Positions 45,650 through 62,700 of a DNA stretch of 64,000 nucleotides are shown here, in pieces. The translations under genes and the position numbers were made by a program. The notes beneath the pieces are model-generated. The model did no database searches, was not told the DNA's origin, and saw only the letters and a list, made by a program, of their open reading frames with translations. How positions within the stretch are numbered: the first letter of the stretch is position 1; the number at the start of each line of letters is the position of its first letter. The DNA comes from Phycisphaerae bacterium (GTDB taxonomy: Bacteria > Planctomycetota > Phycisphaerae > UBA1845 > UTPLA1): the NCBI GenBank assembly GCA_023150615.1, contig JAKLKO010000001.1, positions 62,001 to 126,000 on the forward strand. Direction: 5' to 3'.

Positions 45650-46051
45650 TTACGCGAGGATGCGCAGCGTGCTCGCCAGCATCGACTTGGTCGCCTCAAT
45701 TGCGGTGATGTTCGCCTCGAACGCCCGCGCCGCCATCATCCCGTCGATCATCTCCGTCGCGAGATCGACGTTCGGGTAATAGACCATTCCGTCACGGTCC
45801 GCGAACGGGTGCCCGGGTTCCTTGACGGCCCGCGGAGGGTTCGGATCATCCACGACCTCCGACACGTGCACCCCCGCTCCTCCGCGGCCGTCGCCCGCCT
45901 CGAACAGGACCGCGCGCCGCCGGTAAGGCGCGGGACCTTCGCCGTCGATCCGGCCCGCCGTGAACGCGTTCGCGACGTTGCCCGCGATCGCGTCCATCCG
46001 CGTCCGCTGCGCCACCAGCGCCGACGTGCTCACGTCGAACAAGCCGAACAT
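45650..46051 (-). CDS. flgC: Flagellar rod protein FlgC
   Basis: Proximal rod subunit. The 133-residue protein has the axial-family start LFDVSTSALVAQRTRMDAIAGNVANAFT and the FlgC motif YRRRAVLFEA, with the conserved PGHPFADRDGMVYYPNVDLATEMIDGMMAARAFEANITAIEATKSM C-terminus. Lies 27 bases before fliE, 17 bases after flgB. Confidence 0.95.
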   Translation of the reverse strand: MFGLFDVSTSALVAQRTRMDAIAGNVANAFTAGRIDGEGPAPYRRRAVLFEAGDGRGGAGVHVSEVVDDPNPPRAVKEPGHPFADRDGMVYYPNVDLATEMIDGMMAARAFEANITAIEATKSMLASTLRILA

Positions 46052-58300: not shown

Positions 58301-60268
58301 ATGCGACTCGGATGGGCCGCCCAGCTTACCATCCTCGTGACCTTCTCGGCATCGCTCGTCGCACGCGCGGATCAACCCGCCGGTCCGAACCCGCCGACCG
58401 AAAGCCCCGCGGCGTCTGCCGCCGCGCCGGAAGGCGCGCCCCCGGCGCCGTCAAGAACGCCGCCGGCCCAGCCCGCCGAAGACCCGCTCGCCACGCCGAC
58501 GGTCGCGCCGCGCGATGCGCTCGAGCCGATGGTCATTCGCGAGCCGTCCCAGGGCCGGCCGATCTTCGTCACCCCCGACAGCGAGTTCTTCTTCGTCATG
58601 CGACTGACCCGGCCCCTGACCGGCAGCGACGTAAGCTTCTCCCTCGTGCACGCCAAGGAGCCGTCCGTCCGCTTTCCACTCTGGGCCACCACGCCCCCCT
58701 CGTTCGTCAACAACGAGTTCGCCAGCCTCGTCCTCAAGGCCTCCGCCGACGTGGTGCCGGGCCTCTACGATCTGGAGGTCCGCTCCCAGTCCGCCGCGTA
58801 CCGCTCCGTGCACAGTGTTCGCATCGTCGATCAGTTCCCGTCGAAGTTCCGCTGCATCCACCTGTCCAACATGAACGTCGGCGACCTGACCGCGCCCGAC
58901 TTCGACGACCGGTTGCCCGACGAAGTCAACCTCCTCGCGCCCGAGTTCATCATCGCCACCGGCGATTTCACCGAGTGGTCCCGTGCCCGCAAGGACGCCG
59001 CGAGCTGGTCCAGCGTTCTGAACTACCTCGCGCGATTCGACGCGCCCGTCTTCGTCGTCTGCGGCCTGCACGATCACGAGGAGAGCTTCGCCGATCTCGT
59101 CGCCAGCAGCCCCATCGGCACCATCGAGTTCGGCGACTACCATGGCCTCCTGCTGCTCGACCATCCTGGACATCCCATCGACCAGGATTTCGACCAGCTC
59201 CGCTGGATCGATTCCGATCTGCAGAAGAACCGCAATCGCACCTTCAACTTCCTCGTCATGCACAGTGACGAGCTCGGCCTGCTCGACGCCTGGCGCGAAC
59301 GCGGAAACCTCGCGCGCTTCCTTGATCGCAACCGGATCCGCATGATCATTACCGGCGGCTCCACCGACTGGGACTTCACCGAGTTCAAGGAAAAACTCTC
59401 CGGGCTCGACAACCTGCACTTCATCCGAACGCACCAGTCCAGCACCTGCCTTCGCGACCGCGCCTCCGGCGTCAGCCACTATCGCGTCATCGAGGTCGAT
59501 GGCGAGAAGATCAGCTACATCTATCCCGACGACACCGCGACCGAAAACCTCCAGCACTCGGTTCCGACCGGCAAGCTCCGCGTCTTCTACGATCGCGAAA
59601 ACGACGGCCGGGCCGAACACCTCGTGGCCACCGTGCAGAACGGCCTCAACCAGGCCTTCGAGGCAGCGCGGCTCTGGCTCCGCGTCCAGAAGTCCGGCAC
59701 CACGCCTCCGACCGTCGCCGGTGGCCGGCTCGTCCGCGCGCTCGACGCGGGCGCGTACTGGGCCTGCGACGTCGCCGTGAACCTCCCCGACAAGGGTGCG
59801 GTCCGCGTCATGGCCGCGTCCTCGCCGGGTCAAGTTCCGCCCCCCGTGCCTGTCACCGGGACGTGGAACGGCCCGACCGAGCTCACCTTCACTCCGCGCG
59901 AAACGAAGTTCGGCCTCCGCTACGCCGCAAGCCGCGCCGCGGCGTCCATCACACTCAAGAACGAATCGAACGGCATCATCTCGTGCTGGCCGATCGTGCG
60001 CCTCAACGGTGCGCAGCTCCGCGTCGATCCGAAGCGCTCGCCGACGCTCCCGCTGACGATCAAGGCCGGCGAGAGCGTGGAGCTTCCGCTCGTGCTCAAT
60101 CTCCGGCGCGTCAGCGACGGCGCGCACCTCGTTCAGTTGCACTTTCTGGAAGACCCCCTGACCCGCCTGACGACGTTTCCGGTCACGCTGCGGACCGACG
60201 TCGTGGACGACACCCCGACATCACAGCCGGCGCACGATTCGGCCGCGGCTCAGGTCATAGGGGGATAG
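58301..60268 (+). CDS. Exported calcineurin-like metallophosphoesterase-like protein with eroded metal motifs
   Basis: A 655-residue exported protein; ATG 58301 has GGGAGGA seven bases upstream. A signal peptide ([21 protein letters not shown]) and a Pro/Ala linker precede a beta-sandwich N-terminal region and a phosphoesterase-like domain (about 180-360). Motif positions are recognisable but altered: [10 protein letters not shown] for D-x-[10 protein letters not shown] keeps [11 protein letters not shown] replaces GNHD/E by GLHD, VMHSDE keeps His, and IITGGSTD replaces GH-x-H. A further beta-sandwich follows. The metal site is therefore doubtful. The 3' end overlaps infA by 48 bases. Confidence 0.75.
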
Positions 60269-60445
60269 CTCGACCCGCACCGTGTCGCCCGGCAGGATGC
60301 GGATGAAGTTACGCCGCAGTCGCCCGGAGATGTGCCCGAGCACGGAGTGCTTCTTGCCGCCCAACTCGATCTCCAGACGGAACATCGTGTTGGGAAGCGC
60401 GGCGATGACCTTCGCCTCGACCTCTATTGCGTCGCTCTTGCCCAT
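60221..60445 (-). CDS. infA: Translation initiation factor IF-1
   Basis: IF-1 blocks the A site during initiation. ATG 60445 with AAAGGCGG upstream, giving the expected 74 residues: [73 protein letters not shown]. This is the S1-fold of IF-1, with the conserved R-x-RI-LPGD. The open frame upstream is unrelated. Its 3' end overlaps the exported protein on the other strand, an unusual arrangement for an essential gene. Located apart from the ribosomal operon. Confidence 0.95.
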
Positions 60446-60583
60446 CTTCCGCCTTTGACCGGCTCCGATCCGCACGCGCGGCGGACTCGCGCCAAGACGG
60501 GGCAAGCTAACACACCCCCGCTGCATCGGCAAGTCGGCGCGGGCCGCACGACACGCAACGCGCGCCGCGTTCCCGCCCACGCG

Positions 60584-61040: not shown

Positions 61041-61754
61041 TTACGTGAAGATCCCGGATGAAAAGTCTGCGTCGTCCGCCGGTTGCGGCTCGACCGGACG
61101 TGGCGGCGGCTTCGCAGGCACCGCGGGCGGCGGCGCCGGCCGGCTTGTCGCCGCATCATTCGCGGGCGTCGCGGGCTTCGCCTCGGCCGGCGGTTCCTCC
61201 TCGAGCTCCGGGCCCGGCTCGTGCATCGCTTCGCGCTCGCGTGGTGCATCCCGATCGCGCCGCGATCCCGAATCCCCACGGCGACCGACCGTCTGCTTCA
61301 ACTCCTCCACCAGTTCGCTGTAGTCCGATCCCTCAAATTCTTCCGACTCGTCCAGCGGAACGGGCTTGTATCCCGGCTGCGTCGATTTGGACAGCTCCGC
61401 CTCGAAGGCCTCCACGACCTGCTTCTGGATCCGCTCCCGGCAGGCCGTATTGATCGGGTGTGCCACGTCGACGTGCAGCTTCGACCGCCCGCTGGAGTCC
61501 CGCGGCGGGCGCCGCTCTGACAGCTTCGCCCCGCACTCGTTGCAGAACCGGGCCCGCAAGTGGTTCTTGTGGCTGCACTTCGGACAGCGATACGCCAGCT
61601 TCCGCGACGGCATCGCCACAAAATAGCCGTTCACCCCGTCGATGATCTTCAGATCGCGGATGACGAAGTCGCCATCCAGCGTGATGCTCGCAAACGCCCG
61701 AAGCCGCTCCGCACCGCCATCCACCAGTCGAACACGGATCTCAGTAATCTCCAT
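61041..61754 (-). CDS. spoVG: SpoVG-family protein with inserted zinc ribbon and long tail
   Basis: The N-terminal part, [49 protein letters not shown] (1-52), and later [27 protein letters not shown] (95-121) are unmistakable SpoVG, an RNA/DNA-binding regulator. Between MPSRK and HPIN is a zinc ribbon, C57-x2-C60-x10-C71-x2-C74, with a basic surround. After residue 121 a roughly 115-residue acidic, Pro/Ala-rich tail is added; standard SpoVG has about 95 residues. It overlaps ispE by 14 bases. The ispE-spoVG link is also found in Bacillus. Confidence 0.9.
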
Positions 61755-62649
61755 GGGGTTCCTCGCACACCGCGGGTTCCGTTCTCGTCACCGCTGTCGA
61801 ACACACGATCAGTCGTACGTCGTCGGTTAGCTCCGGCCGAACGCGCTCCCGCCACGCCTCGGCCGCTTCGCGCGTCGTGAAATACGCGAAAAGTGTACTC
61901 CCGCTCCCCGAAACTCGAACCGCCGCGTCGAACCGGCCATCCAGTCGCGCATGCAGCGCCCCCAGACGCGGCTCGACTCGAAACGCCGCCTGCTCCAAAT
62001 CGTTGAAAAACGTCCCGCCGGGTACTTCGGGCAGGCGCGTCCGCGACGAGTCGGGGTCCCATGGTCCGTCAGTGTAATCGCTCGCCCGCAGCGACGTATA
62101 CACCGCCCTCGTCGAGACCCCGTAGGGCGGCACGATGAGCACCAGCCACGCCGACAAATCACACCCCAGCGGTTCCACCCGCTCCCCGCGCCCACGGATC
62201 ATCGACGCCCGGCCCTCCACGAAAAACGGCACGTCCGAGCCCAGCGCTGCGCCGATCGCCGCCAGCCGCTCCCGGCTCCGTTCGAGACCCCACAGCGCGT
62301 TGACCGCCAGAAGCGTCCCCGCCGCATCACTGCTTCCGCCGCCCAGCCCGCCGCCGATCGGAATCCGCTTTTTCAGCCGGACACAAACATCCGGCGATCG
62401 TCCGGCCGCCTCGCCGAGCGCCCGCGCGGCCCGCACAACGAGATTCGACTCGTCGGTCGCCAGTTCCGCCGCGTCACATTCGAGCACCGGGCCGCCCGCG
62501 AACGCCTCCACCTGGAGCTCGTCGTACAGATCGATCGGAACGACAAGGGACTCAAGCTCGTGAAACCCGTCGGGCCGACGCCCGAGGATCCGCAGCGTCA
62601 GATTGACCTTCGCCGGCGCTCGAAACAGCACTCGGCGTGTCGTCGACAT
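61741..62649 (-). CDS. ispE: 4-diphosphocytidyl-2-C-methyl-D-erythritol kinase
   Basis: GHMP-family kinase of the MEP isoprenoid pathway, the same pathway as dxr at 9031. ATG 62649 gives 302 residues; ATGs at 62682 and 62676 are possible. The protein has [24 protein letters not shown], the ATP-binding [31 protein letters not shown] and VSGSGSTLF at the C-terminus. All motifs of IspE are intact. Followed by spoVG with a 14-base overlap. Confidence 0.95.
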
Positions 62650-62700
62650 GCACCGCCCAACGTCTGAATCGCCCATTCGCAAGCGCAGACCCGCGTCGCG

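What the first reader, a model, noticed from the sequence alone, without database searches (positions are those of the whole stretch)
61041..61754. SpoVG split by a zinc ribbon and carrying a 115-residue acidic tail
The two conserved blocks of SpoVG (MPSRK end and HPIN start) are separated by C57-x2-C60-x10-C71-x2-C74 with basic flanks. Standard SpoVG is about 95 residues and lacks this. The insertion falls near the nucleic-acid-binding end of the protein, so it may add a second binding surface or redox/zinc control. Tail and insertion together suggest a distinct regulator in this lineage.
Basis: partly seen in the sequence, partly recalled or inferred. Interest (0 to 1): 0.6.

Follow-up and report, generated by a model that had tools for sequence, protein, structure and literature searches.

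The report
SpoVG regulator with built-in zinc knuckle
This is the ordinary bacterial regulator SpoVG in the form used throughout Planctomycetota: its nucleic-acid-binding core is interrupted by a small zinc-binding module, and here it also has a floppy acidic tail ending in a conserved short peptide; the insertion was noted in 2012, but its zinc-knuckle nature, its presence in Omnitrophota and in viral contigs, and the conserved tail tip do not appear in the papers I could search.

Summary
ORF 61041-61754(-) encodes a 237-aa SpoVG with C57-x2-C60-x10-C71-x2-C74 between MPSRK and HPIN and a 115-aa tail.

It is not peculiar to this lineage. Nearly every canonical planctomycete SpoVG I could read carries the insert, with the four cysteines in exact spacing in 119/119 distinct sequences tabulated. 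Gupta et al. 2012 (PMC3444138) published it as a 32-36-aa signature "not found outside Planctomycetes", without mentioning cysteines. That exclusivity is wrong: most Omnitrophota carry it (51/51 exact among ribbon-bearing forms), and so do ten IMG/VR contigs where the gene is no longer next to ispE. The gene is otherwise the orthologous ispE-spoVG copy.

AlphaFold places an NZF/RanBP2-like knuckle in a SpoVG fold, between the Arg-Lys pair and the helix that contact DNA in characterised SpoVGs.

The less expected part is the tail. It is disordered and variable, yet ends in F-[GS]-x-G-[ILV]-phi in 37 of 83 non-redundant planctomycete tails (shuffles: mean 0.14, max 2). That resembles the acidic tails of Hfq and SSB.

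Best explanation: a housekeeping nucleic-acid-binding regulator with an extra basic surface (the knuckle) and a self-competing, partner-docking tail. Function is untested. New variant of a known kind; moderate interest.

The parts
61041..61754 (-). spoVG, 237 aa, planctomycete zinc-knuckle form
   Evidence: PF04026 E 3.9e-25; SD-like GAGGAA
61599..61754 (-). SpoVG core, first block (residues 1-52), strands b1-b5, ending MPSRK
   Evidence: VIA Z 13.2 to 2ia9
61599..61604 (-). Arg51-Lys52, equivalent of the K50-R51 / R53-R54 doublet essential for DNA binding in S. aureus / B. burgdorferi SpoVG
   Evidence: alignment; PMC3688583
61470..61598 (-). 43-residue insert (residues 53-95), net +8
   Evidence: published planctomycete signature indel PMC3444138
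61533..61586 (-). zinc knuckle C57-x2-C60-x3-N64-x6-C71-x2-C74
   Evidence: invariant; DZR over cut-off; NZF/RanBP2-like in model
61383..61469 (-). second SpoVG block: DVAHPIN and C-terminal helix (residues 96-124), DNA-specificity helix in characterised SpoVGs
   Evidence: H103-124; PMC3688583
61068..61382 (-). variable acidic/Pro-Ala-rich linker of the tail (residues 125-229), mostly low pLDDT
61284..61325 (-). possible short helix in the tail (residues 144-157)
   Evidence: block mean pLDDT 63-70; shifts in the second model (146-158); weak
61047..61064 (-). conserved C-terminal tip F231-S-S-G234-I-F236
   Evidence: F and G invariant in 15 tip-bearing homologues (selected for the motif); 37/83 non-redundant tails vs 0.14 expected
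61741..62682 (-). ispE, immediately upstream and overlapping by 14 nt (conserved partner gene)
   Evidence: TIGR00154 E 6.3e-56; synteny

Best explanation
This is the chromosomal, vertically inherited spoVG of a planctomycete (ispE-spoVG pair), in the zinc-knuckle form shared by Planctomycetota and most Omnitrophota. Core: a SpoVG nucleic-acid-binding domain (shown by homology and predicted fold). Insert: an NZF/RanBP2-like zinc knuckle, basic, anchored between the Arg-Lys backbone-contact pair and the specificity helix (position shown; zinc and binding inferred). It most likely gives each subunit an additional basic contact for RNA or DNA and stabilises the loop with structural zinc. Tail: a disordered, net-acidic linker of variable length ending in a conserved F-[GS]-x-G-[ILV]-phi peptide (shown by sequence). 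It most likely works as in Hfq and SSB: the acidic stretch competes with nucleic acid for the basic surfaces, and the tip docks on a partner protein or on SpoVG itself (inferred).
For: Family and fold: PF04026 E 3.9e-25; VIA Z 13.2 over 86 residues at 44% identity to B. subtilis SpoVG 2ia9; core and knuckle mostly pLDDT ~90. Orthology: ispE directly upstream in nearly all planctomycete, Omnitrophota and short-form loci tested, with glmU and/or prs next in the Omnitrophota and Elusimicrobia loci checked. Knuckle: Cys spacing exact in 119/119 and 51/51, Asn at C+7 in 100% and 96%; insert net positive in 98% of planctomycete sequences; knuckle resembles NZF/RanBP2 fingers including RNA-binding ZRANB2, FUS and RBM5 ones (weak scores because it is small). 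Location between mapped DNA-contact elements (PMC3688583). SpoVG also binds RNA in Listeria (PMC4959528). Tail: negative in 97% of planctomycete tails of 12 aa or more; tip in 37/83 non-redundant tails against a shuffle mean of 0.14 and maximum of 2, and 0 occurrences in 4019 other tail residues, in 29 of 73 family-level groups. Analogue: the Hfq acidic tip competes with RNA on the basic core; SSB also autoinhibits (PMC5606850).
Against: No metal, binding or phenotype data exist for any member as far as I could find. The RNA-stacking Trp of RanBP2-type fingers is absent (Asp or other at that site), so the known GGU-binding mode is not expected, and the same fold also binds proteins (ubiquitin, Ran). 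The knuckle was lost in one Omnitrophota subclade with the core intact, so it is not needed for the fold. More than half of the planctomycete tails lack the tip and some lack a tail. AlphaFold does not place the tip on the core (last-block pLDDT 53 and 49). No other gene with the tip was found in the genome in the one codon form searched.
Confidence: 0.62

Rival explanations
1. The knuckle is only a structural staple or a tolerated ancestral insertion: it binds zinc and stabilises an extended loop but makes no contact of its own; SpoVG works as in Firmicutes.
For: Clean loss in an Omnitrophota subclade (L121-L124, L133, L137, L140 with a 7-residue linker; L131 with an 18-residue linker), nested among ribbon forms at 84/75 support; no RNA-stacking Trp.
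Against: Conservation goes beyond the cysteines: Asn at C+7 at 96-100%, Lys or Arg at C+6, Arg at C+10 in 76% of planctomycetes, and positive net charge. Copies in viral contigs keep the knuckle.
Confidence: 0.2
2. The knuckle is a protein-protein docking module (as NZF and RanBP2 fingers bind ubiquitin and Ran), recruiting RNA polymerase, a ribosome or an RNase, and the core alone binds nucleic acid.
For: The top knuckle-only structural neighbours are ubiquitin- or Ran-binding fingers.
Against: Basic net charge and position among the DNA-contact elements (PMC3688583) favour nucleic acid; structural neighbours at Z 3-4 do not discriminate function.
Confidence: 0.12
3. The knuckle is a zinc- or redox-sensing switch: metal loss or thiol oxidation changes SpoVG binding.
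For: A surface-exposed Cys4 site between two DNA-contact elements would be well placed for it.
Against: All four Cys are invariant across two phyla, as expected for structural zinc; nothing in the sequence points to regulation.
Confidence: 0.06

Closest known systems
SpoVG of B. subtilis / S. aureus / B. burgdorferi / L. monocytogenes (PF04026; structures 2ia9, 2i9x, 2i9z)
   Same: Core fold, MPS-[RK][RK] doublet, HPI-N-x-x-x-R helix, ispE neighbour
   Different: Those have a 7-residue linker where this has 43 residues with a zinc knuckle; they are about 95 aa without a long tail
Planctomycetes SpoVG conserved signature indel (Gupta et al. 2012, PMC3444138)
   Same: The same insertion, reported as 32-36 aa in all Planctomycetes sequenced then
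   Different: The paper treats it as a phylogenetic marker; zinc and cysteine are not mentioned in its text. It states the insert is absent outside Planctomycetes, which contradict (Omnitrophota)
RanBP2-type / NZF zinc knuckles (ZRANB2, FUS, RBM5, TAB2)
   Same: Cys4 spacing C-x2-C-x3-N-x6-C-x2-C and predicted knuckle geometry
   Different: No Trp two residues before the first Cys; PF00641 only 11.1 bits (cut-off 27)
Hfq C-terminal domain (PMC5606850) and SSB C-terminal tip
   Same: Disordered acidic linker of variable length with a conserved extreme C-terminus on a basic nucleic-acid-binding core
   Different: The tip sequence F-[GS]-x-G-[ILV]-phi is unlike the SSB tip (DDDIPF, from my own knowledge) and the Hfq acidic tip; autoinhibition and partner are untested here

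Membership tests
SpoVG (Pfam PF04026) | Profile score over the curated cut-off | tested here: met
   88.2 bits vs 29.6, residues 1-118
SpoVG (Pfam PF04026) | SpoVG fold | tested here: met
   AF2 core pLDDT ~92; VIA Z 13.2, 86 aligned, rmsd 2.2 to 2ia9
SpoVG (Pfam PF04026) | Basic doublet essential for DNA binding after MPS | tested here: met
   R51-K52; S50 and R51 at least 90% conserved in 46 sequences; function from PMC3688583
SpoVG (Pfam PF04026) | Genomic context ispE-spoVG | tested here: met
   ispE adjacent and in nearly all relatives tested
SpoVG (Pfam PF04026) | Site-specific DNA or RNA binding | not testable with these tools
   no assay
NCBIfam NF009749 septation regulator SpoVG (equivalog) | Score over the equivalog cut-off of 108 | tested here: not met
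   82.9 bits; match split by the insert
Planctomycetes SpoVG signature indel (Gupta 2012) | 32-36-aa insert in the conserved region of SpoVG | tested here: met
   Linker is 43 aa here vs 7 aa in short forms, i.e. +36
Planctomycetes SpoVG signature indel (Gupta 2012) | Absent outside Planctomycetes | tested here: not met
   present in most Omnitrophota examined and in viral contigs
Zinc ribbon / knuckle (DZR, Zn_Ribbon_1) | Four zinc ligands in two CxxC knuckles | tested here: met
   C57, C60, C71, C74 invariant; DZR 27.8 vs 27.3 but only its first half (1-24/45); Zn_Ribbon_1 22.5 below its cut-off of 25
Zinc ribbon / knuckle (DZR, Zn_Ribbon_1) | Bound zinc | not testable with these tools
   needs ICP-MS or a structure
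RanBP2-type zinc finger (PF00641) | Trp before the first Cys and curated score | tested here: not met
   11.1 bits vs 27; Y55 here, Asp in most planctomycetes
Hfq/SSB-like acidic tail with terminal tip | Variable acidic disordered linker plus conserved extreme C-terminus | tested here: met
Hfq/SSB-like acidic tail with terminal tip | Tail autoinhibits nucleic-acid binding or docks a partner | not testable with these tools
   no docking visible in AF2 monomer; no assay

The most novel reading that the evidence does not exclude
Planctomycete SpoVG is an Hfq/SSB-like hub: a zinc-knuckle-extended RNA/DNA-binding core whose conserved C-terminal F-[GS]-x-G-[ILV]-phi tip recruits a dedicated partner (for example an RNase, RNA polymerase or ribosome factor), and planctomycete phages carry tip-less knuckle-SpoVG copies that mix with or displace the host protein.
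Probability: 0.2. Interest if true: 0.65.

Novelty: new variant of a known kind. Interest (0 to 1): 0.42.

Why it matters
SpoVG is a small global regulator known from Firmicutes and Borrelia; I found nothing on its function in Planctomycetota, where 233 of 392 sampled genomes have it. The work shows that a published planctomycete-only signature is a zinc knuckle shared with Omnitrophota, which weakens its use as an exclusive phylum marker. It identifies a conserved tail tip that could be used as bait to look for a partner of a SpoVG protein, and it points to viral copies without the tip.

Tried and rejected
Lineage-specific new regulator: rejected, insert near-universal among the phylum's canonical SpoVGs. 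Insert and tail as one package: rejected, they vary independently. Canonical GGU-binding RanBP2 finger: not supported (no Trp, weak score). Tail tip as a motif shared with other genes: F..G-phi-F-x-stop in the own genome gave only SpoVG (the other five hits end in TGG, not a stop). F..G-phi-F-stop in eight other genomes gave SpoVG itself plus unconvincing ORFs among the 30 loci read; about 30 further places in G064 were not read, and TTR leucine codons escape the pattern. A first form of the pattern was badly placed and missed the window gene itself. Single versus double origin of the insert: an insert-masked tree of 80 columns cannot decide. Verrucomicrobiota, Chlamydiota and Lentisphaerota could not be searched. 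Tip docking on the own core: not seen in two AF2 models. Literature: no paper joins SpoVG with zinc ribbon in this sense, with Omnitrophota, or with zinc finger and phage; only open-licence PMC is held. tRNA call at 45884-45959 looks spurious (4-base anticodon, no Rfam match).

Full report
What is there. The ORF at 61041-61754 on the minus strand encodes 237 residues. It starts inside the last 14 nt of ispE (61741-62682; TIGR00154 E 6.3e-56), behind a GAGGAA Shine-Dalgarno-like stretch. Pfam SpoVG aligns over residues 1-118 with the insert bridged (E 3.9e-25), and the insert alone passes the DZR cut-off. The genome has a single SpoVG.

How widespread. A genome-contig scan and whole-genome searches give a clear picture. 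In Planctomycetota, 233 of 392 genomes have a SpoVG. Nearly all listed full-length canonical matches span about 340-380 nt, against about 243 nt for the standard domain, and nearly every canonical planctomycete sequence read has the insert; L228 and L245 have altered cysteine spacing and L238 appears frameshifted. Several families of the window's own class have no detectable SpoVG. In Omnitrophota, 107 of 136 genomes have SpoVG and most of the best matches are of the long type. Elusimicrobiota, Zixibacteria, Krumholzibacteriota and a Desulfarculales sequence have the ordinary 7-residue linker. Spacing C-x2-C-x10-C-x2-C is exact in 119/119 planctomycete and 51/51 Omnitrophota ribbon-bearing sequences, and the Asn at C+7 is 100% and 96%.

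Known before. Gupta et al. [quoted passage not shown] the words zinc and cysteine do not occur in the text. The insertion itself is therefore already known. The Omnitrophota data contradict the exclusivity. I found no paper combining SpoVG with zinc ribbon in this sense, with Omnitrophota, or with zinc finger and phage.

Origin. ispE lies directly upstream in nearly all ribbon and short loci tested. The Omnitrophota loci checked continue with glmU and, in L030, prs; an Elusimicrobia locus has glmU; a Desulfarculales locus has prs. The gene is thus the orthologous chromosomal SpoVG. On an insert-masked tree (80 columns, poorly resolved) the short Omnitrophota forms nest inside ribbon forms (84/75), suggesting loss; L131 keeps an 18-residue linker, perhaps a remnant. 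One gain in a common ancestor or two gains cannot be separated.

Structure. AlphaFold2 on 46 family sequences gives pLDDT around 90 for most of the core and the knuckle, dipping to 69-78 just after it, and mostly 50-70 for the tail. The model matches B. subtilis SpoVG 2ia9 at Z 13.2. The insert alone resembles NZF/RanBP2 knuckles, including ZRANB2, FUS and RBM5 fingers. These knuckle scores are low because the element is about 30 residues, and the RNA-stacking Trp is missing, so only the shape is claimed.

Position and charge. In S. aureus and B. burgdorferi SpoVG a basic doublet after MPS is essential for DNA binding, and a six-residue stretch of the C-terminal helix sets specificity (PMC3688583). 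The insert joins exactly these two elements. Its net charge is +8 here, median +5 in planctomycetes and +2 in Omnitrophota. Hence the proposal of an added nucleic-acid contact; that zinc is bound and that the surface is used are inferences.

Tail. The tail is net negative in 97% of planctomycete tails of at least 12 residues and variable in length (2-259) and sequence, yet its last residues are conserved: F-[GS]-x-G-[ILV]-phi within the last ten residues of 37 of 83 non-redundant tails. Composition-preserving shuffles give 0.14 on average and 2 at most, and the motif occurs nowhere else in 4019 tail residues. It occurs in 29 of 73 family-level groups, usually preceded by Asp/Glu and Pro, and not in 13 Omnitrophota tails. 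Such a layout (basic core, acidic disordered linker, conserved tip) is that of Hfq and SSB, where the tail competes with nucleic acid (PMC5606850). I regard autoinhibition as likely and partner docking as possible; no partner is known, and no other gene in this genome shows the same ending in the one codon form searched.

Viral copies. Ten IMG/VR contigs (L309-L318) encode knuckle-SpoVG, up to 60% identical to the window protein, without ispE in the flanks and without the tail tip. Neighbours include polynucleotide-kinase-like, endonuclease VII and baseplate-like proteins, and the 298-kb contig has a terminase. The other contigs rest mainly on IMG/VR's classification.

Verdict. Observation confirmed. 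Interpretation partly supported: real zinc-knuckle insertion at the nucleic-acid end, but an old, lineage-wide and already published feature of a housekeeping gene rather than a distinct regulator. New here, as far as the held literature shows: zinc-knuckle identity with quantified conservation, sharing with Omnitrophota and viral contigs, and the conserved tail tip.

Noticed in passing
L309-L318 (IMG/VR contigs, e.g. L311:2001-2456, L317:2001-2405): Virus-classed contigs carry a knuckle-type SpoVG up to 60% identical to the window protein, away from ispE and lacking the tail tip; one contig is 298 kb with a terminase. Possible host-takeover gene of planctomycete phages.
   Followed up: partly
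L259-L276 (Omnitrophota genomes, e.g. L259, L260, L262): Many Omnitrophota have a second, divergent short SpoVG (about 90 aa, no insert, first block altered, e.g. VLRLHRLSGE) besides the ispE-linked one.
   Followed up: partly
L084 (SpoVG tail): Tail of this planctomycete SpoVG is a long poly-glutamate run (75 D/E in 95 residues), an extreme of the acidic tail.
   Followed up: no
L012, L027, L143 (SpoVG C-termini): Some Omnitrophota SpoVG tails end in D-[IL]-E-L-like tetrapeptides, possibly a different terminal motif.
   Followed up: no
L228, L245: Planctomycete knuckle variants with altered first CxxC spacing (CSC; CPHRGC).
   Followed up: no
window 60221-60580 (-): IF-1-like gene (PF01176 E 1.6e-21) downstream; the listed ORF probably starts too far upstream, the real start likely at [13 protein letters not shown].
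   Followed up: no
window 45884-45959 (-): ARAGORN calls a tRNA with a 4-base anticodon; no Rfam match, probably spurious.
   Followed up: partly
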